From Apostichopus japonicus (Eukaryota > Echinodermata > Holothuroidea > Aspidochirotida > Stichopodidae): 64,000 nucleotides of DNA. The translations under genes were made by a program, and so were the position numbers. A model generated the notes under the pieces. It saw only the letters and a list, made by a program, of their open reading frames with translations, was not told the DNA's origin and made no database searches. The first letter of the stretch is position 1. Each line of letters opens with the position of its first letter. Shown here in pieces: positions 10,421-58,596 of the stretch. Location: NCBI RefSeq assembly GCF_037975245.1, contig NC_092569.1:12508501-12572500 (forward strand). The letters run 5' to 3'.

Positions 10421-12243
10421 AATATATATATATATACCATGGCTAAATATGATGTTAGACTTTGTTTCTTTTTAAAATACGAGAAAAAATTTGGATATTC
10501 GAATGGAACTTATGAAATGACTCCAAACATCCAAATGAAAAATAATAGTTAACATGAATGTGAAGTTATTTACTGTAACCTACGATGTTCAAAATAGGAA
10601 TATTTGAAAAGCTGCGTCCAACATCTGCTTCGTAGGAGAGCGTAGAAAGTGTAGAAACATATTGACGACTTACACACGTTGCACAACGTCAAATATATGA
10701 AAATGACCGTTTAGAAGAGATGTACTGTTTGTCTATAACGGAAAAAATCTGAAAATTACATTTGCACTTCTTAAAAAGCTTCATTTCGTTTGGTTACTTC
10801 CTCCCTGTTTTAATTGATTTATTTTTAATTAGATATTGTAAAGTAGCGAAATGTTCCTTTTTCGGTGTTTAAGTGGTGTCATTGGTGCAGTATTTGTCTC
10901 TCACACTCGATTTTGAGGAAATAAAAAATTTAAGTAATACTTAACCTTTACCACTACATTTTATACGCGTTTTGACGGTTATTCAGAAACAAAAACACAC
11001 TCGGGATGAGTGGTTATCTCACACGGAAGTAATATACCAATTATAAAAATATTAGCCGGACGGGGCCTTAAAAGGTCATCGATATCTTCGCATCATACAT
11101 AATATGTCAGCATACACTTAAGGTATCGTTCCTCCATACTGAGATATTCAATTGACAATGTTAGTAAATCTCCAGTGGCTCGGAATAATTTATATGACTG
11201 AGCCCCCCCCCCCCCCCCAGAAAATTATTTTGGCACTCTCAGTCTAGCAGCTTTTGTGTTAGTGTGTTTGACATTTTCGTCAATAACATCGATCGGGACA
11301 TTCTGGACACATATGCATAAATATGCACAGATCATTGCAAGATAACACTATAGCAATCGTGGAGCTTGTAAGACTTCAAATGATGTGTTTACAATGCATT
11401 TCAATTATAGCAAATGAGATATCAATTTTTAGATGTCACCCAGGGGTATATACACAATGGATTGACCTTAACATTTAAGTATGCAACGAGGAGCCGACTT
11501 CATTACCATTGTAGCATTAAAAGAAAACGTAAGAAAACACACCGAAAAAAAAACACAAAAAAAAAACCCCAGAGGAAATGATTCTGTTTCTGTTTCTTCA
11601 TGTTTGCTTTATAATTGTTAATTTCATTGATATTGGAGACAACTTTGGGACCGACTTGGGATCGACTTTTGGTATTCACTAGGGTGACACAACCACCCAC
11701 CCACCCCTTCCCTCGAAAGTACACTCTATAGGAACAGTCAGAGGGAAATTGGAATGGCTATACAGACTATAGGCTACATAAATTGCACTCAATTCTTTCT
11801 TTTGCTTGTTGACCTATTATAATATATTCTACCTACTGTTATCTTTTAAAACGCTTTCGTATGGTTACGATTAATCTTTCACAAACAAGCCTGTGAAGAA
11901 CTTTACTTTGTTATTTTTTTAATACATGAGTAAAGCTGGTATGCACCTGCACAAGGTATACACTTCTGTAAATTTGTGACGTCATTCTGGCATAAGCGAG
12001 ATATTAATTGTCTTTCAGGGAAAGCAATGTGCTTCCGTTAGGTCAGCGTAGGTTTCGGTGATAAAAACCATAGCAACTATATCTATATAACAAAGTGTAT
12101 AGTGCAAACACATCTAATATCAAAATGAAAACAACATGTATGCTTGATAAAACAGCTTAGAAATATATGTATAGTTAGTGCGTAAGATTCTAACAAGGTT
12201 AAAATAACACATAAAAATGAATAAGCAATGAACTGAAGTTATA
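9700..12243. other. Intergenic, copy A
   Basis: No gene is supported. The stretch contains an AT microsatellite (about 10376-10434), a poly-C run near 11205-11218 and short chance frames. At 11375-11383 it holds the unoccupied CTTCAAATG target that is filled by the foldback element in copy B. Confidence 0.55.
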
Positions 12244-13836: not shown

Positions 13837-15069
13837 TCATTTCAAAAATTTCAAAAAGTTTGAATAATCTTTGATCCATTTGTGATGTCCACATTCGTTA
13901 CACCCCCCTAGCCAATTTAGCCCATATGGGTCGAAGACTCGCTTTGATAAATCTTTTTTTTTTGCTTCCAGGAAGTCGATTAATCTACAAACACCGAAAT
14001 CTGTAAGTGATGTTATATCTCTAATAGGGTTACATTTCACTGTGCCATTGGTTTTCCATTGAAAATATGAATCATAGAGATCTTTATCCTTTGATACCCT
14101 TAGGATATAGTCTGCCAAATCCTTCAACGAATCAAAATCGTCAGCGTGAATGAACGAATTAGACGGAGCCTGTCGTTCGTAATCCACTTTTGGGGCACCT
14201 ATTACAACAGGAATAGCTTTAAAGAGAGAGAAAACATTCCAAAATTTTTCTGTAATATAACCCCCACAACAACTATTTTCGAATGCAGCAATAAATTTGT
14301 ACTTTCTGAAAACCCTTGTGCAGTTCACCCAAGATTGCTTAGGACAGGATATTTCACCACAATCCCCGTACATGTCGATTGGTATGTAGTTTCCAAGATC
14401 ATGTACGGCATCCGATCTCCTCCACATTGGGGTACTGCAATGACTTGAGACCCACGCCATCAAATGTTCCTTCTGATAGAAATTTGACTCGAACTTTAAA
14501 GCTGTTTTTTCCTCACCGGTGAAGGGAGAGAAAGCTCCATATGGGGTATAAATATCTGATTTGGGATGATACGTAGAACTGATGTTAAAATGAATATCAC
14601 TCATTTCTATGGGTGGAATAAACTTCCTGGAAGTAAACGCACTCTCCTCGGTTGCAAATACCCACAGTTGATTATGTTGCCTTCTTTTCGCAAGTTCCTG
14701 CCAAATGTCAATGTCACCAATTATTCCCGAGAAAATCAATACATCTGCTCGTTGAGTATTACCAGATTCATAGGTAGCTTTTTCAATTCGGACCGATGAA
14801 TTTTCAATCCGTAGTTCGCAAGTAACGAATCTTGGAAGTATTAATTGATTTGCCCAAAAGACCGAAGTGGCGACAATAGCTACTCGGTATTGCACATCAG
14901 TACCTTCGACAGGCGTTTGTAAACCCCTTGACATAACATCTCTTTGAAGAGGGATTGTTGAGTCATACAATAATTTACCGTCCATCGTTAATAAACCGAA
15001 GCAAGTTATCGAAACTGTTAAGAACATAACCAAGACACAAGCAATTAAGATATGTTTGGTGTTTGCCAT
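13837..15069 (-). CDS. Alpha-1,3-fucosyltransferase (GT10), copy A
   Basis: Single-exon gene of 410 residues. Glycosyltransferase family 10 enzymes transfer fucose from GDP-fucose to GlcNAc-containing glycans in the Golgi. Residues 6-27 form one hydrophobic segment behind a short basic tail, the usual type II anchor. Family landmarks in order: DMYGDCG (232-238), FENSCCGGYITEKFW (263-277), VVIGAP (288-293) and FIHADDF (306-312), then a cysteine-rich C-terminus ending GGCNECGHHK. The GYITEK stretch has Gly where most animal members have Asp. Sequons are at Asn 90, 162, 249 and 341. The start is the ATG at 15069; upstream codons in frame are TTG, CTG and ACG, then a TGA near 15099, so this is the first Met. 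The last residues FLKFLK reflect a 9-base tandem repeat absent in B. Acceptor specificity cannot be read from sequence. In an echinoderm, fucosylation of sulfated polysaccharide or Lewis-type glycans are both possible. Confidence 0.93.
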   Translation of the reverse strand: MANTKHILIACVLVMFLTVSITCFGLLTMDGKLLYDSTIPLQRDVMSRGLQTPVEGTDVQYRVAIVATSVFWANQLILPRFVTCELRIENSSVRIEKATYESGNTQRADVLIFSGIIGDIDIWQELAKRRQHNQLWVFATEESAFTSRKFIPPIEMSDIHFNISSTYHPKSDIYTPYGAFSPFTGEEKTALKFESNFYQKEHLMAWVSSHCSTPMWRRSDAVHDLGNYIPIDMYGDCGEISCPKQSWVNCTRVFRKYKFIAAFENSCCGGYITEKFWNVFSLFKAIPVVIGAPKVDYERQAPSNSFIHADDFDSLKDLADYILRVSKDKDLYDSYFQWKTNGTVKCNPIRDITSLTDFGVCRLIDFLEAKKKDLSKRVFDPYGLNWLGGCNECGHHKWIKDYSNFLKFLK

Positions 15070-16383
15070 CGTCAGCAAACGGTCGATGATAAATCAAAGC
15101 AATATCAAAAATAAGCTCCACGAATGGGACAAATAAAATCCGAACGACTGAAATGTATTAACAGAAGTATAACGTCATATAGCTATGTCGTCGAAGAAAG
15201 TGGAGTTGCAATCAGTGAATGTTCACATGACTCGCTTACTACTAATTTTCTGTTAACGTTTGAATCCAGATGGAACATTATTATAATTTAACTATGATGA
15301 TAAAATGAATGATGCTAGACTAAAGCCTTCTGACAAATCATGCCTGCAATGTGGTGTAACATCCATCGGCGGCTAGCTATAGTATATAGGCATTCCGCTG
15401 AGTTTGAAGGTGAACGCGAATTATGACATTGTTATACGTATGCCATAAATGAACAAAACAGTAGGCCTATTGATACCAAATTCTCCTTCAATTGTGTTCG
15501 GTCAAGGTGATTCTTTTCTCTGAAGTGTGATACCAGCTTATCAGGGAAAATACTGTCCTTTTGAATTGATTATGGAAGATTGTATTTGGTCGATGTGGCA
15601 TATAGCTGCTCATCAGGTGTGGGCTTCTTCGTATAACCTATATAATGAGCTGCTATAGTTCTAGACTATATTCAGACCTACATCCTTGCAGTCTAATCAA
15701 CACTCTGCATTCTGTAATAAACGCACACGAACCGATGTCATTTCCTGACCTGGTTTGGCAGATTCCCTACAGTTGCATTGTTATTTTAAGGTATACTTCT
15801 GTTATCTCATCGCTCCCATAGGAAACTAAGTAGGCCATGGCTAGTAATATAGGCTCTAGTATTACTTGCCATTTTTTCTCTTCATTTCATGTATATATAT
15901 ATATTGCACAGGCATGTACTATAGAACAATGACCTCTCTTCTTGTACCTATAGTGTACATTGCATTTAGATATATAACAAATAAATCACCATTTCATCAC
16001 TTCCCAAATGAGCTTACATGACTACCTCAAAACCAAACCCTAACCCCCACCCCCTTCCCTCTCCAACCTTGTCGCACATCAGACTTCTGTATAATTGCAT
16101 CCAATGGAAACACGTAAGAAGTTAGCAATTCGGTCTACCTCAAGCCAACGTCAACCTCCTTCCACCTCCGAAAAACTCCCCACTCGGGCAATCAGAAATG
16201 TCTTTCAAGAATCGGAGCTATCCTCAATAATAGGGTGTAAATACACTCAAATTAGTACAACATAAGGTGGGGGCGGGGGGACTTACCACTTTATGTAAAT
16301 GACACTGAATTTTTATATAACTTGTTCAAGTCTTTCACTCTGCCAAAATCACCTTGGATCTCCGTCCGTATACAGAATATTAT
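15070..16383. other. Upstream of fucosyltransferase A, intergenic
   Basis: No other gene is seen. The first few hundred bases should hold the 5' UTR and promoter, but no clear TATA box or upstream exon can be named. Copy B (56735-58063) is colinear with small indels. Confidence 0.45.
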
Positions 16384-23254: not shown

Positions 23255-26200
23255 CTCATGTGATTTTTGTTCAGCGTCTCGAAAAACGTGGGATAATAAT
23301 AATAATAATGTTACTTATCTACTAATGTACACAGAACCAGGGACGTAGCCAGGGGGGGAGCAGGGGGAGCGACCGCTCCCCCCCTTTCAGTGTCGATTTT
23401 TTTTAAACTGTCGTTTTTTAGCATGGTATTTTGTCAGTGCTCTTTTGATCTTGAATACTCGTCAGCTCCGTTAACTCGATTGTAATCGTAGTAACATTCA
23501 CGCCTACTGATTCAACTACTTACTTAGTTTGGCAGATGCAATTAGCTAAATTTAGCTTATAGCCAATTACAAGCCTACAGTTGGCCACTGTGTAATAAAA
23601 TATATATTGCCTACCTATACCTAACCGCACTCTATGGAATGTCACGACCTGTATGCACAACAACGTTCGTTCTATGAGTCGTCCTAAGGTGTTGCACGAA
23701 CAGCATGTTATGAAGCTAAGCTAGCAATCGTACGTGATACGCACTTCCTGTAATAATTATTACACTGCTAATACACTGCGATAACGATATTTGTTTTTAG
23801 GCCACTGCATATCTGGCAATATTACAAAATATGAAAGTTTATATTGTCCATCAGTTAAGTTCGTCAAATGTATTAAAGTCCAGACATTGGACAATAAACA
23901 AGAATCATCCTACTGGAAAAAATTGTAAAAGAGCAATATGTTTGTCTTTCTGATTTATTATGTAAAAGAACATGTAAAAGAATTCAAACAGGAAACAAAA
24001 TCTGCTGATTATGATATCATATGATCAGGGGCGTTGCCAGTATGTAGCACTGTAGGCCCGGGCCTACATTTTTTTTGGCCAAGTTATCTTTTTTAAAAAA
24101 CACCCATAATTCAAATCGATAAGCTTGCTGGACGAGTTTAAGTGTCTATAGACAGGACAAACTATTGAAATGAACGTAGCAAGAATATGGCTAAATTAGG
24201 TGACCTATTCTTCTGTCATCTAGGCTGTCATTTCTATCGCGTGCCGTTTCATTCAACACTCTACCCGCCGAAAAAGATTAGGATCCGATCTTCTCAGTTT
24301 TTTAACATGTAGTTAAGAACCCGTTTACGCAGATAATATTTCAGTTGAGAAAACAGTTGAGAAATTTGCAACAGATTGCAATCGTCGGATACCTCTCGCC
24401 TTCTCTTATTAGGCTAACTTAAACATTTAATAGCTACAGTTGTATCAAAGACAATGACTGCATGCTATAGTTATATCAAAGACATTTCAGGCCTATCTTT
24501 GTATCTATAAGTATCAGAAGTTGAAACGTAAGACTACTCTGTACATGTACCTTGCTAATTTTAAATACATTATGTAGTATTGAATTAGACATTTAATAGC
24601 TACAGTTGTATCAAAGACAATTACTGCATGCTATAGTTGTATCAAAGACATTTCAGGCCTATCTTTGTATCTATAAGTATCAGAAGTTGAAACGTAAGAC
24701 TACTCTGTACATGTACCTTGCTAATTTTAAATACATTATGTAGTATTGAATTAGACATTTAATAGCTACAGTTGTATCAAAGACAATTACTGCATGCTAT
24801 AGTTGTATCAAAGACATTTCAGGCCTATCTTTGTATCTATAAGTATCAGAAGTTGAAACGTAAGACTACTCTGTACATGTACCTTGCTAATTTTAAATAC
24901 ATTATGTAGTATTGAATTAGACATTTAATAGCTACAGTTGTATCAAAGACAATTACTGCATGCTATAGTTGTATCAAAGACATTTCAGGCCTATCTTTGT
25001 ATCTATAAGTATCAGAAGTTGAAACGTAAGACTACTCTGTACATGTACCTTGCTAATTTTAAATACATTATGTAGTATTGAATTAGACATTTAATAGCTA
25101 CAGTTGTATCAAAGACAATTACTGCATGCTATAGTTGTATCAAAGACATTTCAGGCCTATCTTTGTATCTATAAGTATCAGAAGTTGAAACGTAAGACTA
25201 CTCTGTACATGTACCTTGCTAATTTTAAATACATTATGTAGTATTGAATTAGACATTTAATAGCTACAGTTGTATCAAAGACAATTACTGCATGCTATAG
25301 TTGTATCAAAGACATTTCAGGCCTATCTTTGTATCTATAAGTATCAGAAGTTGAAACGTAAGACTACTCTGTACATGTACCTTGCTAATTTTAAATACAT
25401 TATGTAGTATTGAATTAGACATTTAATAGCTACAGTTGTATCAAAGACAATTACTGCATGCTATAGTTGTATCAAAGACATTTCAGGCCTATCTTTGTAT
25501 CTATAAGTATCAGAAGTTGAAACGTAAGACTACTCTGTACATGTACCTTGCTAATTTTAAATACATTATGTAGTATTGAATTAGACATTTAATAGCTACA
25601 GTTGTATCAAAGACAATTACTGCATGCTATAGTTGTATCAAAGACATTTCAGGCCTATCTTTGTATCTATAAGTATCAGAAGTTGAAACGTAAGACTACT
25701 CTGTACATGTACCTTGCTAATTTTAAATACATTATGTAGTATTGAATTAGACATTTAATAGCTACAGTTGTATCAAAGACAATTACTGCATGCTATAGTT
25801 GTATCAAAGACATTTCAGGCCTATCTTTGTATCTATAAGTATCAGAAGTTGAAACGTAAGACTACTCTGTACATGTACCTTGCTAATTTTAAATACATTA
25901 TGTAGACTAATATAATGTAGTAGTGAATTACGTACTATTTTAACTCATTTGTTTTTGGGGTTTAAAATTGATATTGAATGAGGTGTCTCAAGATAGCAAG
26001 AGGCCAGGGAACCAGAATGAACACTCGGGAAGGGCCGTTTCCGGCCATCTGGGGGGTTTGTAAAACCAAAAATTTTCTTGTACGCTCCGCGCCAACCGAT
26101 GGTGGCACTCCGCTCAGATAGTCGTGCCTACAACTTTGAAAATCCATATCAATCGCAAAAAGTGCTCCCCCCCTATCAAATTCCTGGCTACGTCGCTGCA

Positions 26201-35595: not shown

Positions 35596-35616
35596 AGCAC
35601 AGTGTTATTTCGTAAA

Positions 35617-38600
35617 GTGGCATACTCCTATTAGAGTCTATATCAATCCGCTCGATTGTTCTCTTTCAGGAAAAGTGCCAAAAAGCAGCGGGAGAACATC
35701 TTTTGTGACCTGTTATCAATCATAATCTAGTTTTTTGTGGCTTGCATGTTGAAGAGCATGAATGGAAGTACATGTGGTGAGAAAATTGGGTCAATTGAGG
35801 CAATTTTAGACCCCTTTAGGCCTCCCGGGAGCAGCGTAGGAAATTTGTTTACCACTGAGTGAAGAGGTTTGTTTACAAGTGACGAAAACTTCCGGCTCGG
35901 ATAGCAAAAAATCTTCATGGTCATGGTACGGAAAATTGATGGTGCCATGAAAGGCCAACTTGTCAGCTATCCGGTGATGGGTAGCGTTTAGCTAGTGAAA
36001 ACTTCTATCTAGACTTAGAGACCACATTACTTTTGTGATTTAGTGTGTAAGTCAATGGGGCTTTTAATGGGCGTATGCTACCTTAGGCAAAAATGCCAAA
36101 TTTTTCATTTTAAGTGCTAGAAGTCCCAATTTTGGTTCAAAGTAGTTGCTATGGTGTGTAAAAATGGTTTTCAAGCAAACGTCAGAAAATTTCAAGCTTG
36201 GTTGATTTTTACGCATAAATTAGTATTACAGCCTTAAAGTACCACAAAGAGCATGTGCGTTTCTATACAGTAGACTAGAACAGCCTTCTGAGCATTTCTG
36301 ACCAGTTTTTCCTCCCCAATAAACTATTGGGTCATTAAGCCTTGACCTACCAAAGCTTCTGTAGTATGATTCCTGCCTTGAATCTGCTAAGTAGGTGCCA
36401 AATGCACGAAATTCAAAATCCTTCAGAATCAGACCAAAATGCCTGCAGTGTGTGTGACGTGAACGACTAAGTTCAGTGAAATTTGACATCTGTGGGCACC
36501 TAAAGTACATGGTAATCATATTTTAGGTTATTTTTGCTAAAGTTGGAAGTACCTGGTGTTTAACTAAGGACAAAAACTCAGTTTCAATGCATGAAATACC
36601 CCTAATGTTGTTAGCTTAGGCCTAGGCCTCAGGTTCATAATGGCGCTACGTTAGTATCCTAGACCAAGTCTACACCAGCTGTAGCACAATGTTGTATGAG
36701 GTCTGTATCCTAAGTGGAGTGGCTGCTGAGTGCTAATACCTTGCACAGAGAATATTTTGAGTCTTATTTAGCAAATAATCCACAAAGGTATGCATTTTCT
36801 GCCCCTGCATATGTGCACCAAGGGGTTTTTGAGCCTACTCACTCCTCATTAGTTTTCTGTTGTTTTGTCAATTTTCAGAGAAAGTTGATGTGCTAAGTCC
36901 TTAGCATGCACAGCTATATACTTTGAATGGGTGTGGTATCAATGGACTCAACTGGTTAGATCAGGTAACAACGAATCCTAAACAACTCTGACAGCAGAAA
37001 GAGATATCCTGATGCTTCCATGGGAGATCTGCTCTAGTAACTAATAGGAACCAGTGCTTGCCACCAATGGAGAATAAGGTAATTTGACGTTGTTGTTCTT
37101 TGCCGAGCAACAGATTTGAATGTTTTATCATGAAATATGCCCCCCTATCCACCTCTCTTCTCTTATAACTGTCTTTAATACATTGTTACAACCTATGCAC
37201 AAACCTTTAAATGGACTGGGTGTGCTATTGAGGTGAACAGTGTATCTAGATAGCATTCCAGTAAGCTTTCCTTTTGACTACTGTAATACTGTTACAGTGA
37301 GGCTGTTGTTTACAAATCACGATGATCCAGTTTTGGCAAAGAACACCTTCAATTCTCTTCTTTTATTCTTAGTAACTTAACAGTTGCACTGGAGTGACAT
37401 GCAATATCAGTTTAACATGTTCCAAACAGTTCAGGAATACATTGGGGTATGTCCTGTGGGTCAGTTTGTGAGGAATCTGCTGAGCTAAACAAAAGTAGTT
37501 TTCATCACTTTTCAGAGCCAGAGACGAAAAAGCCCTCACCGCTATCACTTCTATGGATGATGTTTCTGCAGGTAGGGCAAGCCAGACCAAGTGGACTGTG
37601 ATCAGGGATACCAATAATACCTGCAAGAATCATAGATGCACCCAAATTGGTCAAGCTTATCAAAATTGGTGACTGGAAGTGTTGTTGCAGACATAGACCT
37701 GGTTACTGCTTACACAGTATTGCTCATATGTGTATTTACACACTGCACCGTGCATACTGAAATCTCTGAAATACATCTTTATGGACCTAAAATGATAATT
37801 GCATAGATTTCTGTTGTGGTTTATATGGTGACGACTATGAAAAGTATCATTTTGGTGATAAAAAAAATTCAACTCTCACTTAAGGTGGCATACTCCTATT
37901 AGAGTCTATATCAATCCGCTCGATTGTTCTCCTTCAGGAAAAGTGCCAAAAAGCAGCGGGAGAACATCTTTTGTGACCTGTTATCAATCATAATCTAGTT
38001 TTTTGTGGCTTGCATGTTGAAGAGCATGAATGGAAGTACATGTGGTGAGAAAATTGGGTCAATTGAGGCAATTTTAGACCCCTTTAGGCCTCCCGGGAGC
38101 AGCGTAGGAAATTTGTTTACCACTGAGTGAAGAGGTTTGTTTACAAGTGACGAAAACTTCCGGCTCGGATAGCAAAAAATCTTCATGGTCATGGTACGGA
38201 AAATTGATGGTGCCATGAAAGGCCAACTTGTCAGCTATCCGGTGATGGGTAGCGTTTAGCTAGTGAAAACTTCTATCTAGACTTAGAGACCACATTACTT
38301 TTGTGATTTAGTGTGTAAGTCAATGGGGCTTTTAATGGGCGTATGCTACCTTAGGCAAAAATGCCAAATTTTTCATTTTAAGTGCTAGAAGTCCCAATTT
38401 TGGTTCAAAGTAGTTGCTATGGTGTGTAAAAATGGTTTTCAAGCAAACGTCAGAAAATTTCAAGCTTGGTTGATTTTTACGCATAAATTAGTATTACAGC
38501 CTTAAAGTACCACAAAGAGCATGTGCGTTTCTATACAGTAGACTAGAACAGCCTTCTGAGCATTTCTGACCAGTTTTTCCTCCCCAATAAACTATTGGGT

Positions 38601-40618
38601 CATTAAGCCTTGACCTACCAAAGCTTCTGTAGTATGATTCCTGCCTTGAATCTGCTAAGTAGGTGCCAAATGCACGAAATTCAAAATCCTTCAGAATCAG
38701 ACCAAAATGCCTGCAGTGTGTGTGACGTGAACGACTAAGTTCAGTGAAATTTGACATCTGTGGGCACCTAAAGTACATGGTAATCATATTTTAGGTTATT
38801 TTTGCTAAAGTTGGAAGTACCTGGTGTTTAACTAAGGACAAAAACTCAGTTTCAATGCATGAAATACCCCTAATGTTGTTAGCTTAGGCCTAGGCCTCAG
38901 GTTCATAATGGCGCTACGTTAGTATCCTAGACCAAGTCTACACCAGCTGTAGCACAATGTTGTATGAGGTCTGTATCCTAAGTGGAGTGGCTGCTGAGTG
39001 CTAATACCTTGCACAGAGAATATTTTGAGTCTTATTTAGCAAATAATCCACAAAGGTATGCATTTTCTGCCCCTGCATATGTGCACCAAGGGGTTTTTGA
39101 GCCTACTCACTCCTCATTAGTTTTCTGTTGTTTTGTCAGTTTTCAGAGAAAGTTGATGTGCTAAGTCCTTAGCATGCACAGCTATATACTTTGAATGGGT
39201 GTGGTATCAATGGACTCAACTGGTTAGATCAGGTAACAACGAATCCTAAACAACTCTGACAGCAGAAAGAGATATCCTGATGCTTCCATGGGAGATCTGC
39301 TCTAGTAACTAATAGGAACCAGTGCTTGCCACCAATGGAGAATAAGGTAATTTGACGTTGTTGTTCTTTGCCGAGCAACAGATTTGAATGTTTTATCATG
39401 AAATATGCCCCCCTATCCACCTCTCTTCTCTTATAACTGTCTTTAATACATTGTTACAACCTATGCACAAACCTTTAAATGGACTGGGTGTGCTATTGAG
39501 GTGAACAGTGTATCTAGATAGCATTCCAGTAAGCTTTCCTTTTGACTACTGTAATACTGTTACAGTGAGGCTGTTGTTTACAAATCACGATGATCCAGTT
39601 TTGGCAAAGAACACCTTCAATTCTCTTCTTTTATTCTTAGTAACTTAACAGTTGCACTGGAGTGACATGCAATATCAGTTTAACATGTTCCAAACAGTTC
39701 AGGAATACATTGGGGTATGTCCTGTGGGTCAGTTTGTGAGGAATCTGCTGAGCTAAACAAAAGTAGTTTTCATCACTTTTCAGAGCCAGAGACGAAAAAG
39801 CCCTCACCGCTATCACTTCTATGGATGATGTTTCTGCAGGTAGGGCAAGCCAGACCAAGTGGACTGTGATCAGGGATACCAATAATACCTGCAAGAATCA
39901 TAGATGCACCCAAATTGGTCAAGCTTATCAAAATTGGTGACTGGAAGTGTTGTTGCAGACATAGACCTGGTTACTGCTTACACAGTATTGCTCATATGTG
40001 TATTTACACACTGCACCGTGCATACTGAAATCTCTGAAATACATCTTTATGGACCTAAAATGATAATTGCATAGATTTCTGTTGTGGTTTATATGGTGAC
40101 GACTATGAAAAGTATCATTTTGGTGATAAAAAAAATTCAACTCTCACTTAAGGTGGCATACTCCTATTAGAGTCTATATCAATCCGCTCGATTGTTCTCC
40201 TTCAGGAAAAGTGCCAAAAAGCAGCGGGAGAACATCTTTTGTGACCTGTTATCAATCATAATCTAGTTTTTTGTGGCTTGCATGTTGAAGAGCATGAATG
40301 GAAGTACATGTGGTGAGAAAATTGGGTCAATTGAGGCAATTTTAGACCCCTTTAGGCCTCCCGGGAGCAGCGTAGGAAATTTGTTTACCACTGAGTGAAG
40401 AGGTTTGTTTACAAGTGACGAAAACTTCCGGCTCGGATAGCAAAAAATCTTCATGGTCATGGTACGGAAAATTGATAGTGCCATGAAAGGCCAACTTGTC
40501 AGCTATCCGGTGATGGGTAGCGTTTAGCTAGTGAAAACTTCTATCTAGACTTAGAGACCACATTACTTTTGTGATTTAGTGTGTAAGTCAATGGGGCTTT
40601 TAATGGGCGTATGCTACC
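35617..40618. repeat. 2,268-bp tandem array, structure E-S-E-S-E
   Basis: E (466 bp) occupies 35617-36082, 37885-38350 and 40153-40618; the ~1.8-kb spacer S occupies 36083-37884 and 38351-40152. Units are nearly identical: only a handful of single-base differences were seen (for example CTCTTTCAGG against CTCCTTCAGG, and GATGGTGCC against GATAGTGCC in the last E). E starts GTGGCATACTCC and ends GGCGTATGCTACC, an imperfect inverted repeat; the inner E copies are flanked by TTA. No protein of a known family is encoded, although several 60-97-codon frames repeat with the unit. Confidence 0.95.
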
Positions 40619-43652: not shown

Positions 43653-43939
43653 CAGGCCGTGGCTATTCTTACGACTAGTCGTAACAATTATTTATAAACT
43701 ATTCTTACGACAAAGGCGAACTCAAGCGCAGTAAAGTAAATAAAGCAACTGCGCATGTAGTAGGGGTAACCCTAACCCTAACTTTAACCCTAAACCCCAA
43801 TCCTAACCCTAACACTAACCCTAACCGGAAATTATTGTTACTCCTGGTTGTAAAAATAGTACTCCTGTCATAGAAATAGCAACTGCGCATGCGTAATCGG
43901 AAATTATTCTTACGAACAGTTGTAAGAATAGCCACTTTG
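43653..43939. mobile_element. 287-bp inverted-repeat element carrying telomere-like repeats
   Basis: Flanked by AACAAAG on both sides (43646-43652 and 43940-43946). Copy A has the single unoccupied site near 3600. The ends are CAGGCCGTGGCTATTCTTAC and, reversed, CAAAGTGGCTATTCTTAC, sharing GTGGCTATTCTTAC. Further inner repeats (GGAAATTATT, AACTGCGCATG) occur in pairs. The centre is a run of CCCTAA-type units. No coding capacity. Confidence 0.82.
43766..43826. repeat. Interstitial telomere-like (CCCTAA)n tract
   Basis: About nine CCCTAA units with variants (CTTTAA, CCCTAAA, CCCAAT, CACTAA). It lies inside the 287-bp element and is not at a chromosome end. Confidence 0.9.
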
Positions 43940-52366: not shown

Positions 52367-52429
52367 CTTCAAATGGAAGCAGGACACTTCGCCCAACAAC
52401 CATTTCGCCCAACTGCCATATCGCCCAAC

Positions 52430-52627
52430 CAGCCTGGTCATTTCGCCCAACCAGCCTGGTCATTTCGCCCAACCAGCCTGGTCATTTCGCCCAACCAGCC
52501 TGGTCATTTCGCCCAACCAGCCTGGTCATTTCGCCCAACCAGCCTGGTCATTTCGCCCAACCAGCCTGGTCATTTCGCCCAACCAGCCTGGTCATTTCGC
52601 CCAACCAGCCTGGTCATTTCGCCCAAC
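52430..52627. repeat. Left 22-bp array of the foldback element
   Basis: Nine perfect units starting at 52430 and then every 22 bases to 52606. All three frames stay open through it, producing repetitive artefact ORFs. Confidence 0.97.
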
Positions 52628-52639
52628 CTTGATTAAATA

Positions 52640-53000
52640 TGATACTTCAAAAGGAAATGTTCGGGAATTCGGGGATACGAACCGAATATTAAGGAAACTT
52701 GAGGATGGATCAGTGTGTTAGTGGTTAGGTTTGATAGTAAACGTTCGAATATTCAGGAATATTAAGGAAACTTGAAGTCCTTTACTTTGTATAACTTTAG
52801 TAAGGAGAGGTTCGGGAATTTTTAACGTTACAGGATACGAACCGAATATTAAGGAATCTTGAGGATGGATCAGTGTTTTAGGGGTTAGGTTTGATAGTAA
52901 ACGTTCGGGAATTGTTAACGTTACGGGATACGAACCGAGTATTAAAGAAACTTGAAGTCGTGGTTTAATTGATTCCATAATTGATTACATATAGTTCCTC
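52640..53000. repeat. Internal direct repeats of the foldback element
   Basis: GATACGAACCGAATATTAAG and GAGGATGGATCAGTGT-type blocks recur in direct orientation. Further to the right, CCCAAAATAAATCAAATT (three times) and CCCCTTTGTTTGTATAATAA (twice, near 53218 and 53643) recur on either side of the LINE fragment. Confidence 0.8.
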
Positions 53001-53410
53001 AAATATGCAAACGGCTCTTCTAAGGGCCACTCAATGCTCTAGAAAAAAAGACAACTATACAGTTCCTCAAACATGCAAAGGGCTCATTGCGTAACTTTTG
53101 TCAGACTACGATCGACATCGAACGGACATCACTTTATTAACCTACCAATAATATAACCCAAAATAAATCAAATTACACTAGTGAAATAAAAACGGTTATA
53201 TTATTTCACATCGATTCCCCTTTGTTTGTATAATAATATAACTTCCATATAATAATAATATAACTTCCAATAATGTAACCCAAAATAAATCAAATTGAAC
53301 TAGTGAAATAGAAACGGTTATATTATTTTCATGTTTTCTAAAAGTATTTGTACCAGAGGTCATTGTCTTAAACTCCAAAAGTCACATAGTAGGATTAATA
53401 TTCGGCATAA

Positions 53411-53634
53411 CTTTTTTCTAACAGGGTTGTGAATGAGTGGAATGGTTTGTCTGAGAAAGTTGTACTTGCAAGTAGTGTCAATGGGTTTAAGAATGCTTTG
53501 GACAAGCACTTTAAGCATTGTAATCGGGTCTGAGTGTTAGTGTCTTTAGTTTTTTTTTCTCTCTCTCTATAGGGTCCTTGATGGGGACTTAAGTGTCCCT
53601 CCTGATCCTTTTTTTCTACTAAACTAAACTAAAC
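53411..53634 (+). pseudogene. CR1-like LINE 3' fragment inside the foldback element
   Basis: Codons 53411-53533 read LFSNRVVNEWNGLSEKVV, then LASSVNGFKNALDKHF and a stop. This is the typical extreme C-terminus of CR1/L2-type reverse transcriptases (NRVVN-WN-LP--VV---S---FK--LD). The following 3' UTR has a GGGACTTAAGTGTCCC hairpin and ends in repeated ACTAA(A), as CR1-like 3' ends do. Severely 5'-truncated. Confidence 0.82.
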
Positions 53635-53862
53635 ACCGATTCCCCTTTGTTTGTATAATAATATAACTTCCATTGTATGCGTAAACGCCTAAAGTAGTGT
53701 AATCCTCCCATTATACCCGAAATAACTGCTCAGATTTCGATCGATATCGAGCGGACTTCACTTTATTTACCTATTACGAAGTAACCTAACCCAAAATAAA
53801 TCAAATTGAACTAGTGGAATAGAAAAAGTAATATTATTCTGACTGAATATTAGTAAAAATAA

Positions 53863-54040
53863 GGTTGGGCGAAATGACCATGCTGGTTGGGCGAAATGAC
53901 CATGCTGGTTGGGCGAAATGACTATGATGGTTGGGCGAAATGACCATGCTGGTTGGGCGAAATGACCAGGTTGGTTGGGCGAAATGACCAGGCTGGTTGG
54001 GCGAAATGGCAGTTGGGCGAAATGGTTGTTGGGCGAAGTG
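53863..54040. repeat. Right 22-bp array of the foldback element, inverted
   Basis: Units of GGTTGGGCGAAATGACCATG-type starting near 53863, 53885, 53907, 53929, 53951 and 53973, then shorter terminal units. More variable than the left array (CATGCT, CTATGAT, CCAGGTT variants). Confidence 0.93.
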
Positions 54041-54059
54041 ACTAGAAAGCCTTCAAATG

Positions 54060-55507: not shown

Positions 55508-56734
55508 TCATTTCAAAAAGTTTGAATAATCTTTGACCCATTTGTGATGTCCACATTCGTTACAACCCCCTAGCCAATTTGGCCCATATGGGTCGAAGAC
55601 TCGCTTTGATAAATCTTGTTTTTTTGCTTCCAGGAAGTCGATTAATCTACAAACACCGAAATCTGTAAGTGATGTTATATCTCTAATAGGGTTACATTTC
55701 ACTGTGCCATTGTTTTTCCATTGAAAATATGAATCATAGAGATCTTTATCCTTTGATACCCTTAGGATATAGTCTGCCAAATCCTTCAACGAATCAAAAT
55801 CGTCAGCGTGAATGAACGAATTAGACGGAGCCTGTCGTTCGTAATCCACTTTTGGGGCACCTATTACAACAGGAATAGCTTTAAAGAGAGAGACAACATT
55901 CCAAAATTTTTCTGTAATATAACCCCCACAACAACTATTTTCGAATGCAGCAATAAATTTGTACTTTCTGAAAACCCTTGTGCAGTTCACCCAAGATTGC
56001 TTAGGACAGGATATTTCACCACAACCCCCGTACATGTCGATTGGTATGTAGTTTCCAAGATCATGTACGGCATCCGATCTCCTCCACATTGGGGTACTAC
56101 AATGACTTGAGACCCACGCCATCAAATGTTCTTTCTGATAGAAATTTGACTCGAACTTTAAAGCTGTTTTTTCCTCACCGGTGAAGGGAGAGAAAGCTCC
56201 ATATGGGATATAAATATCAGATTTGGGATGATACGTAGAACTGATGTTAAAATGAATATCACTCATTTCTATGGGTGGAATAAACTTCCTGGAAGTAAAC
56301 GCACTCTCCTCGGTTGCAAATACCCACAGTTGATTACGTTGCCTTCTCTTCGCAAGTTCCTGCCAAATGTCAATGTCACCAATTATCCCCGAGAAAATCA
56401 ATACATCTGCTCGTAGTTGAGTATAACCAGATTCATAGGTAGCTTTTTCAATTCGGACCGATGAATTTTCAATCCGTAGTTCGCAAGTAACGATTCTTGG
56501 AAGTATTAATTTATTTGCCCAAAAGACCGAAGTGGCGACTACGGCTACTCGGTATTGCACATCAGCACCTTCGACATGCGTTTGTAAACCCCTTGACATA
56601 ACATCTCTTTGAAGAGGGATTGTTGAGTCATACAATAATTTACCGTCCATCGTTAATAAACCGAAGCAAGTTATCGAAACTGTTAAGAACATAACCAAGA
56701 CACAAGCAATTAAGATATTTTTGGTGTTTGCCAT
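55508..56734 (-). CDS. Alpha-1,3-fucosyltransferase (GT10), copy B
   Basis: Single-exon gene of 408 residues, the partner of 13837-15069, with the same anchor and GT10 motifs. By eye there are about 15 amino-acid replacements, one inserted codon (Leu in TQLRAD) and loss of three C-terminal residues. Notable changes are DMYGGCG for DMYGDCG and NVVSLF for NVFSLF just after YITEKFW. About eight silent changes were counted, so replacement is not strongly suppressed, although the frame is intact and no motif residue known to be catalytic is broken. It is a functional paralogue or the other allele of the same gene. The start is the ATG at 56734, chosen for the same reason as in A. Confidence 0.92.
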   Translation of the reverse strand: MANTKNILIACVLVMFLTVSITCFGLLTMDGKLLYDSTIPLQRDVMSRGLQTHVEGADVQYRVAVVATSVFWANKLILPRIVTCELRIENSSVRIEKATYESGYTQLRADVLIFSGIIGDIDIWQELAKRRQRNQLWVFATEESAFTSRKFIPPIEMSDIHFNISSTYHPKSDIYIPYGAFSPFTGEEKTALKFESNFYQKEHLMAWVSSHCSTPMWRRSDAVHDLGNYIPIDMYGGCGEISCPKQSWVNCTRVFRKYKFIAAFENSCCGGYITEKFWNVVSLFKAIPVVIGAPKVDYERQAPSNSFIHADDFDSLKDLADYILRVSKDKDLYDSYFQWKNNGTVKCNPIRDITSLTDFGVCRLIDFLEAKKQDLSKRVFDPYGPNWLGGCNECGHHKWVKDYSNFLK

Positions 56735-58058
56735 CGTCAGCAAACGGTCGATGATAGATCAAAGCAATATCAAAAATAAGCTCCACGAAAGGGACAAATA
56801 AAATCCGAACGACTGAAATGTATTAACAGAAGTATAACGTCATATATAGCTATATGTGTCGTCGAAAAAGTGGAGTTCAATCAGTGAATATTCATGTTGT
56901 CAATGGCCGTCCATATGACTCTCTTACTAATAATTTTCTGTTAACGTTTGAATCCAGATGTAACATTATTATAAGGTAACTATGATGATAAAATGAATGA
57001 TACTAGACTAAGGCCTTCTGACAAATCATGCCAGTGTGGTGTAACATCCATCGGCGGCTAGTATATAGGCATTCCGCTGAGTTTGAAGGTGAACGCGAAT
57101 TATGACATTGTTATACGTATGCCATAAATGAACAAAACAGTAGGCCTATTGATACCAAATTCTCCTTCAATTGTGTTCGGTCAAGGTGATCCCTTTCTCT
57201 GAAGTGTGATACCAGCTTATCAGGGAAAATACTGTCCTTTTGAATTGATTTTGGAAGATTGTATTTGGTAGATGTGGCATATAGCTGCTCATCTCAGGTG
57301 TGGGCTTCTTCGTATAACCTATATAATGAGCTGGTATAGTTCTAGACTATATTCAGACCTACATCCTTGCAGTCTAATCAACACTCTGCATTCTGTAATA
57401 AACGCACACGAACCGATGTCATTTCCTGACCTGGTTTGGCAGATTCCCTACAGTTGCATTGTTATTTTAAGGTATACTTCTGTCATTTCATCGCTCCCAT
57501 AGGAAACTAAGTAGGCCTTGGCTAGTAATATAGGCTCTAGTATTACTTCCCATTTTTTCTCTTCATTTCATGTATATATTGCACAGGCATGTACTATAGA
57601 ACAATGACCTCTCTTCTTGTACCTATAGTGTACATTGCATTAAGATATATCACAAATAAATCACCATTTCATCACTTCCCAAATGAGCTTACATGACTAC
57701 CTCAAAACCAAACCCTAACCCCCACCCCCTTCCCTCTCCAACCTTGTCGCACATCAGACTTCTGTATAATTGCATCCAATGGAAACACGTAAGAAGTTAG
57801 CAATTCGGTCTACCTCAAGCCAACGTCAACCTCCTTCCACCTCCGAAAAACTCCCCACTCGGGCAATCAGAAATGTCTTTCAAGAATCGGAGCTATTCTC
57901 AATAATTGGCTGTAAATTCACTCAAAAGTACAACATAAGGTGGGGGCGGGGGGACTTACCACTTTATGTAAATGACACTGAATTTTTATATAACTTGTTC
58001 AAGTCTTTCACTCTGCCAAAATCACCTCGGATCTCCGTCCGTATACAGAATATTATGT

Positions 58059-58596
<538 letters not shown>

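What the first reader, a model, noticed from the sequence alone, without database searches (positions are those of the whole stretch)
52376..54050. Foldback transposon with termini built from inverted 22-bp minisatellites
The insertion has an exact 9-bp target duplication, an empty site in copy A, and inverted ends that share the same non-repetitive outermost modules followed by nine (left) and about six (right) 22-bp units. This is the architecture of FB elements (9-bp duplications) and echinoid TU elements. The left array is perfectly homogeneous and the right varied, which suggests the two ends evolve separately. It may be a new foldback family.
Basis: partly seen in the sequence, partly recalled or inferred. 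Interest (0 to 1): 0.75.

Follow-up and report, generated by a model that had tools for sequence, protein, structure and literature searches.

The report
Foldback DNA transposon in sea-cucumber genome
A jumping gene whose two ends are mirror-image stacks of a short repeated DNA word occurs in hundreds of copies in what is probably a sea-cucumber genome; it works like known insect and nematode Mutator-type "foldback" transposons, and adds a clean example with two differently tipped ends.

Summary
The insertion is real: a non-autonomous DNA transposon of 1,676 bp (52375-54050), absent from paralogous copy A. It belongs to a high-copy family: 856 exact end-word matches genome-wide, reversed control 0; 410 A-ends, control 0.

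The 9-bp duplication is not right. In 32 independent two-ended copies it is exactly 8 bp in 28 and 9 bp in one; in the window the ninth base is the element's own first G.

All 32 have one "A" tip (GGAAGCAGGA or variants) and one "B" tip (GCTTTCTAGT, GCTTGCGAGT or variants). These 10-nt tips are not inverted repeats. Inside them lie inverted arrays of a 13-bp core with 3/5/9-bp spacers. In 2 of 21 copies the interior is flipped, as by recombination between the arrays.

Two members carry the C-terminus of a MULE transposase; its closest examined relative outside the family looks like a PHD+FLYWCH+MULE gene. A FLYWCH-MULE element with inverted 17-bp minisatellite ends lies on C17.

So it is a new foldback family of Mutator/Phantom type, close in architecture to Muta1 and Tm1. 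No autonomous copy was found.

The parts
52367..52374 (.). left target-site duplication CTTCAAAT (8 bp)
   Evidence: empty site 11374-11381
52375..52384 (+). A tip GGAAGCAGGA, outside the inverted repeat
   Evidence: same tip or a close variant in all 32 two-ended copies; 410 matches of the degenerate A-end pattern genome-wide, control 0
52385..52416 (+). two outer 16-bp modules (core CAYTTCGCCCAAC + AAC / TGC)
52417..52614 (+). A array: nine 22-bp units CATTTCGCCCAAC+CAGCCTGGT (first unit with one mismatch)
52615..52627 (+). last A-side core, then the A-inner junction CTTGATTAAATATG
52628..53863 (.). interior: about 365-nt A-inner and about 230-nt B-inner blocks shared with other members, variable middle; no transposase match
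53328..53632 (+). about 305-bp private insertion with a TAAAC tail (LINE 3'-end-like by recalled motif); no match over 100 bp in the 20 other copies
   Evidence: a 37-aa frame from it has no Pfam match
53864..54008 (-). B array: last core (53864-53876) and six 22-bp units with spacers CAGCCTGGT, CAACCTGGT, CAGCATGGT, CATCATAGT, CAGCATGGT, CAGCATGGT (outside in)
54009..54040 (-). two outer 16-bp modules of the B end
54041..54050 (-). B tip GCTTTCTAGT, outside the inverted repeat
54051..54058 (.). right target-site duplication CTTCAAAT
11374..11381 (.). empty target site CTTCAAAT in paralogous copy A

Best explanation
The feature is one copy of a high-copy, non-autonomous cut-and-paste DNA transposon family of foldback type in the Mutator (MULE) superfamily, Phantom-like. 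SHOWN: 8-bp (rarely 9-bp) target duplication; two fixed, different 10-nt tips; inverted arrays of a 13-bp core; MULE transposase remnants in two members; flipped interiors in two of 21 copies. INFERRED: a transposase of PHD/FLYWCH/MULE type, made elsewhere, binds the repeated 13-bp core CATTTCGCCCAAC at both ends (many binding sites per end), cuts at the A and B tips and inserts with an 8-bp stagger. Array length drifts by slippage or unequal exchange, and the two arrays can pair and recombine, inverting the interior while the tips stay in place.
For: Family and ends: 856 end-word matches, control 0; 410 A-ends, control 0. Target duplications: exactly 8 bp in 27 of 31 independent two-ended copies plus L079, so 28 of 32; chance about 2.6e-5 per copy; 9 bp in L021. 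All 32 have one A and one B tip. Empty site. MULE link: a profile of the C-termini of three MULE ORFs of this genome hits the L017 interior at E 1.1e-8 among 2,483 ORFs of 47 loci; no hit at E<=1 in 4,855 reversed or shuffled control ORFs. The same peptide finds C22 and C20 loci beside MULE-domain hits on the same strand, a second member L079 (83%), and L080 (54%) with FLYWCH 2.8e-7 (over cut-off), PHD 6.5e-5 (0.7 bits under cut-off) and a partial MULE match 1.9e-4 (under cut-off). Same-architecture element on C17: 503-aa frame with MULE 7.4e-13 and FLYWCH 3.2e-4 (2.4 bits under cut-off) between inverted 17-bp arrays, 9-bp duplication. Flipped interiors: L020, L026. Precedents: Muta1/Muta5 (passages), Tm1; tandem repeats as extra transposase sites: Galileo (abstract).
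Against: No autonomous copy with these ends was found: 0 of 20 MULE loci (+/-1.5 kb) and 0 of 11 loci read at 4.8-7.5 kb (eight of them the same loci, so 23 distinct of 38 MULE matches) carry the TTCGCCCAAC arrays; 15 MULE matches were not read. The remnant was found in 1 of 47 loci by profile and in one more by genome search; two further high-identity pieces (C8, C21) were not read. Pfam alone does not recognise the remnant. The 17-bp element does not share the 22-bp unit. 8-bp duplications also fit hAT and P elements, whose transposases I did not search for. Binding to the core is untested.
Confidence: 0.8

Rival explanations
1. A foldback element of MULE-like look that is moved by an unrelated 8-bp-duplication transposase (hAT, P/THAP, Merlin, KDZ); the MULE fragment in L017/L079 is a captured passenger.
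For: 8-bp duplications are usual for these groups (general knowledge); Galileo shows that foldback ends can belong to the P superfamily; some members carry unrelated inserts (L049; the window's own 305 bp).
Against: The remnant is in two members with different insertion sites, whose DNA matches at 96% over 512 bp from within the remnant onward. Muta-type MULEs have the same layout of terminal motif, tandem core and 8-9 bp duplications. A same-genome FLYWCH-MULE has inverted minisatellite ends. One 9-bp duplication (L021) is MULE-like. hAT, P and other families were not searched for in this genome.
Confidence: 0.13
2. The C-terminal MULE fragment was gained by gene capture (Pack-MULE style) from another transposon, so the family is a MULE but its own transposase is not the PHD/FLYWCH type.
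For: The first 10 codons of the L017 frame resemble interiors of other members that lack the rest (9 of 10 residues in several, weak: E about 0.3); capture of gene fragments is documented for MULEs.
Against: Both members keep the fragment in the same A-to-B orientation and ending at the same stop, as expected for internal deletion of an autonomous ancestor.
Confidence: 0.2
3. No transposon: an inverted duplication of a minisatellite or an assembly artefact.
For: Tandem arrays can invert and assemble badly (general knowledge; no call).
Against: Empty paralogous site, exact target duplications in 28 of 32 copies, 27 distinct target sequences among the 27, fixed tips.
Confidence: 0.01

Closest known systems
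Muta1 / Muta5 (Aedes aegypti MULEs; placed with Phantom by PMC6446971, passages)
   Same: 8 or 9 bp target duplications; a 10-bp (8-bp in Muta5) terminal motif outside tandem 12-bp (15-bp) subterminal repeats; in Muta1 these are separated by 3-4 bp spacers; hundreds of non-autonomous derivatives, often with variable repeat number in Muta1 (passages of PMC5225508)
   Different: In Muta1 the terminal motif is an imperfect palindrome within the inverted repeat; here the two tips are different, non-inverted 10-mers. Core and spacers differ; no active transposase is known here.
Tm1 (root-knot nematode Mutator/Foldback family)
   Same: asymmetric 7-bp motifs A1/A2 outside the inverted repeat; tandem about 14-bp units of variable number; 8-10 bp duplications (passages and part 1 of 2 of the Discussion of PMC3169594)
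   Different: different sequences and tip length (10 nt); mostly 9-bp duplications there, mostly 8-bp here
Drosophila FB elements
   Same: long inverted termini made of short tandem units
   Different: 9-bp duplications and unit sizes are recalled; no FB sequence was compared
Echinoid TU elements
   Same: foldback elements of an echinoderm with tandem units in the inverted repeat and 8-bp duplications (recalled; a passage of the Tetris paper only mentions a sea-urchin foldback)
   Different: no TU sequence was available here, so kinship is untested
Galileo / Tetris (Drosophila)
   Same: internally repetitive inverted ends; in Galileo the repeats hold extra transposase-binding sites (abstract)
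   Different: Galileo encodes a P-type transposase; Tetris units are about 220 bp (passages)
FLYWCH-MULE element at G000:C17:19936411-19943828 (this genome)
   Same: inverted minisatellite arrays, unlike terminal stretches outside them, FLYWCH+MULE frame
   Different: 17-bp unit, 9-bp duplication, 7.4 kb, one copy examined

Membership tests
Foldback-type transposon (structural class) | long inverted termini built of tandem short units, variable in number | tested here: met
   1-9 A-side and 0-7 B-side 22-bp units counted by the parser across 21 copies; in L051 23 A-side cores recognised, about 30 if the 22-bp spacing is unbroken
Foldback-type transposon (structural class) | insertion flanked by a target duplication, with an empty site elsewhere | tested here: met
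   8-bp in 28 of 32 copies; empty site (window copy only)
Drosophila FB family | 9-bp target duplication | tested here: not met
   8 bp in 28 of 32, 9 bp in 1 of 32
Drosophila FB family | sequence kinship | not tested
   no FB sequence was compared
Mutator superfamily (MULE) | 8-11 bp target duplication (PMC6446971, passage) | tested here: met
Mutator superfamily (MULE) | MULE transposase encoded by the autonomous member | tested here: inconclusive
   C-terminal remnants in L017 and L079; no full-length member found in the loci read
Phantom/Muta clade | FLYWCH + MULE transposase | tested here: inconclusive
   closest examined relative of the remnant outside the family (L080, 54%) has FLYWCH (over cut-off), PHD and a partial MULE match (both under cut-off); the family's own N-terminus was not found; no tree was made
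Phantom/Muta clade | terminal motif outside tandem subterminal repeats (as in Muta1, Muta5, Tm1) | tested here: met
Echinoid TU | sequence and domain order of TU inverted repeats | not testable with these tools
   no TU sequence in the held sources; 0 occurrences of 'TU elements' in the 20 of 22 papers listed
hAT / P / Merlin / KDZ | matching transposase and canonical tips | not tested
   not searched; P and hAT tips recalled as CA/CAG, unlike GG/GC here

The most novel reading that the evidence does not exclude
The two ends are functionally unlike: the transposase must pair one A tip with one B tip (32 of 32 copies), reads target DNA in a set orientation (R-A-Y next to the A tip), and uses the symmetrical minisatellites only as a copy-number-variable docking array that also flips the cargo by recombination. 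Tip hexamers that run as a direct rather than inverted repeat (GGAAGC ... GAAAGC/GCAAGC) would be part of that polarity.
Probability: 0.35. Interest if true: 0.6.

Novelty: new member of a known kind. Interest (0 to 1): 0.42.

Why it matters
It is an unusually legible foldback family: hundreds of copies, exact target duplications, a readable unit order in each array, and members caught with flipped interiors. That makes it possible to test how foldback ends form and what the repeats do. It also gives a candidate transposase class and a same-genome element of like architecture, and shows why a single copy can mislead by one base about target-duplication length.

Tried and rejected
9-bp duplication: rejected by the other copies. 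Filler DNA at the ends (the 9/10 nt that do not pair): rejected, they are the fixed A and B tips. L051's long 'ORFs' as transposase: rejected, they are read-through of a long array. L049 as a 9.8-kb autonomous element: rejected, it is a member with a Gypsy-like retrotransposon nested in it (recognised by eye from open frames; no domain search). L078: a MULE locus without these ends (its SWIM-like, multi-exon look is recalled). Viral contigs: 0 matches. Rfam: 0. Literature: the end words occur in 10 papers on unrelated subjects, presumed primers (listing only). Searches listed no description of this family; their lists are capped (20 of 39, 20 of 22, 12 of 24, 12 of 147, 10 of 577, 10 of 10), so this is not proof that none is in print. 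Host: assembly size and scaffold count (671,581,487 bases, 35 contigs) match Apostichopus japonicus (671.60 Mb, 34 scaffolds; passages of PMC10344927); inference only. A genome-wide B-tip count and a count of the 17-bp family were not obtained.

Selection: one search listed only its first 100 places (contigs C1-C3), so the copies read come from C1-C3, plus the window (C9) and L079 (C17). The 20 copies were the first 20 listed pairs on C1-C2 with both 17-mers intact within 2 kb (the C2 12.08-Mb cluster left aside; 7 further listed pairs on C2-C3 were not fetched), so intactness is over-represented. In one search I fetched 16 of 17 further unpaired plus-strand ends and one unit of the cluster. 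Dropped before the TSD count as duplicates: L003/L004 (=L009), L005/L006 (=L010), L007/L008 (=L011), L061 (=L026). Set aside because no second end was recognised: L001, L052, L053, L054, L056, L057, L058, L059, L062, L063, L064.

Full report
CHECK OF THE OBSERVATION. The window copy has two inverted arms (52385-52562 and 53863-54040, 178 nt, 96%), nine and six 22-bp units, and an empty counterpart in a tandem-duplicated segment (copy A about 1-21.8 kb, copy B about 41-64 kb), where CTTCAAAT stands once at 11374-11381. The stretch CTTCAAATG does occur on both sides. The left G at 52375, however, belongs to the element. That could not be seen from one copy.

THE FAMILY. The word CACTTCGCCCAACAACC has 444 forward and 412 reverse exact matches in the window's own assembly (671,581,487 bases, 35 contigs), reversed-pattern control 0. 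The A-end pattern GGAAGCWGGWCACTTCGCCCAAC has 410 matches, control 0; these counts include single ends and duplicated clusters. I read 31 independent two-ended copies (duplicates removed; all from contigs C1-C3 except the window copy) and one more, L079. All 32 have one A tip and one B tip. Exact 8-bp duplications flank 28 of 32; L021 has 9 bp, L009 7 of 8, L019 and L022 none. Chance identity of 8 bp at a fixed offset is about 2.6e-5. The 27 target sequences used are all different. They show a weak preference R-A-Y at positions 6-8, next to the A tip (information 0.62, 0.47, 0.41 bits; 95% of random samples have a maximum under 0.34).

ANATOMY. From outside in, each end is: a 10-nt tip (A: GGAAGCAGGA and variants; B: GCTTTCTAGT, GCTTGCGAGT, GCTTTCTGGT); two 16-bp modules, core CAYTTCGCCCAAC plus AAC or TGC, with occasional losses or changes; on the A side in 20 of 21 copies an 18-bp module (5-nt spacer, mostly CTTAC; missing in the window copy); then 22-bp units, core plus a 9-bp spacer. 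On the A side 80 of 97 spacers read CAGCCTGGT. On the B side, of 98 spacers, CAGCATGGT is the commonest (33), then CAGCCTGGT (23), CGTGTTGGT (19) and CATCATAGT (8), and their order recurs between copies. The parser counts 1-9 A units and 0-7 B units in 21 copies; its zeros include ends with mutated modules. In L051, 23 A-side cores are recognised with at most one mismatch, about 30 if the 22-bp spacing is unbroken. The tips are not inverted repeats of each other. Read along one strand they look like a direct repeat (GGAAGC at the left, GAAAGC or GCAAGC at the right), a small resemblance that may be chance.

INTERIOR. Members share an A-inner block (about 365 nt) and a B-inner block (about 230 nt) with a variable middle; some copies keep less. 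In L020 and L026 (2 of 21) both blocks are in reverse orientation relative to the tips, and the module lists show A-type units running into B-type ends, as expected if the two inverted arrays recombined. The window copy carries a private insertion of about 305 bp (about 53328-53632) with a TAAAC tail, without a match over 100 bp in the 20 other copies; its reading as a LINE 3' end is recalled, and a 37-aa frame from it has no Pfam match.

TRANSPOSASE. Pfam MULE (PF10551) has 38 matches in the genome. None of the 20 loci fetched with 1.5-kb flanks has the family's core word, and none of 11 loci read at 4.8-7.5 kb (eight of them the same loci) has its arrays, only isolated 6-7-mers; 15 of the 38 were not read. 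But L017, an 1,800-bp member with an exact 8-bp duplication, holds a 124-aa open frame that matches a profile of the C-termini of three MULE transposases of this genome (E 1.1e-8 among 2,483 ORFs of 47 loci; nothing at E<=1 among 4,855 control ORFs; tblastn E about 1e-4). It is the only one of the 47 loci that does. Pfam does not recognise this part of the protein. In the genome the peptide has 21 matches. C22:1441988-1442272 and C20:7580270-7580533 lie next to MULE-domain hits on the same strand. C17:10586417-10586683 (83%) is inside a second member, L079, 2,365 bp, TSD CCTCATAA. C8:2944700 (98% over 45 aa) and C21:6291033 (92% over 24 aa) were not read. C17:21195366 (54%) belongs to a broken gene, L080, with FLYWCH (2.8e-7, over its cut-off), PHD (6.5e-5, 0.7 bits under its cut-off) and a partial MULE match (1.9e-4, under its cut-off); no inverted repeat was seen in its 5 kb. 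The family is therefore best read as deletion derivatives of a PHD/FLYWCH/MULE transposon. PMC6446971 (part of its table) lists a PHD finger for Rehavkus; the Tm1 paper gives FLYWCH for Phantom.

A SAME-GENOME PARALLEL. At C17:19936411-19943828 a 503-aa frame with MULE (7.4e-13) and FLYWCH (3.2e-4, under its cut-off) lies between inverted 17-bp minisatellites (about 52 and 31 units within L067; the left array runs on into L073), with a 9-bp duplication GTTGGCTTT, found by comparing the stretches around the two array ends, and unlike sequence outside the arrays. Of the 10 MULE loci read at 7.5 kb, it is the only one with such arrays around the frame; L068, L074 and L075 have inverted repeats beside it. 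It shows that a FLYWCH-MULE with inverted minisatellite ends exists here, but its unit differs, so it is not shown to move the 22-bp family.

MECHANISM. Shown: insertion with an 8-bp target duplication; fixed unlike tips; inverted core arrays; transposase remnants in two members; flipped interiors. Inferred: transposase bound to many cores per end; cutting at the tips; trans-mobilisation; array change by slippage or unequal exchange. The precedent for repeats as binding sites is Galileo (abstract); the precedent for layout is Muta1/Muta5 (passages) and Tm1, which also has asymmetric motifs outside the inverted repeat.

AGE. Over about 200 bp of the B-inner block the window copy differs from its nearest sampled relative (L016) by 1.5%; the closest pairs among 20 copies differ by 0.5%. 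The insertion came after the copy A/copy B duplication, or was lost cleanly from copy A.

VERDICT. Observation partly confirmed; interpretation partly supported. I found no description of the family in the searches made, which give capped lists and do not cover Repbase or most subscription journals. It is a new member of a known kind; the strict A/B polarity with oriented target use is the part most worth following.

Noticed in passing
G000:C17:19936411-19943828 (L067, L073): FLYWCH+MULE transposon, 7.4 kb, open 503-aa frame, inverted 17-bp minisatellite ends, 9-bp duplication GTTGGCTTT.
   Followed up: partly
G000:C2:12081449-12108786 (first unit read as L050): Tandem array of roughly 4.9-kb units by spacing of the end words; in the one unit read (L050) one member is inserted inside another, both with exact 8-bp duplications.
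   Followed up: partly
L051 (G000:C1:12157982-12162000): Family member whose A array has grown to about 30 units, a possible step from transposon end to satellite.
   Followed up: partly
L049 (G000:C3:1149985-1159958): Family member with a Gypsy-like retrotransposon nested in it, recognised by eye.
   Followed up: partly
window 1-21815 and about 40950-64000: Large tandem segmental duplication (about 82-99% identity by piece); each copy has a GT10 fucosyltransferase in one open frame (13840-15093 and 55511-56758, minus strand).
   Followed up: no
window 24419-25905: 166-bp satellite, nine copies, 99%.
   Followed up: no
window 35613-40618: 2.27-kb tandem duplication at 99.85% identity.
   Followed up: no
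window 58059-58594: (TA)268 tract at a copy A/copy B alignment break.
   Followed up: no
window 43767-43826: Interstitial telomere-like TAACCC repeats.
   Followed up: no
G000 C17 and C11: Pieces of FLYWCH-MULE relatives cluster: 32 of 60 matches lie on C17 and 16 of 60 on C11 (matches are exon pieces, not genes).
   Followed up: no
L052, L053, L054 (C1:16967849, 21220558, 21257041): Three single A-ends with the same 18-nt left flank, likely one solo end spread by duplication or within another repeat.
   Followed up: no
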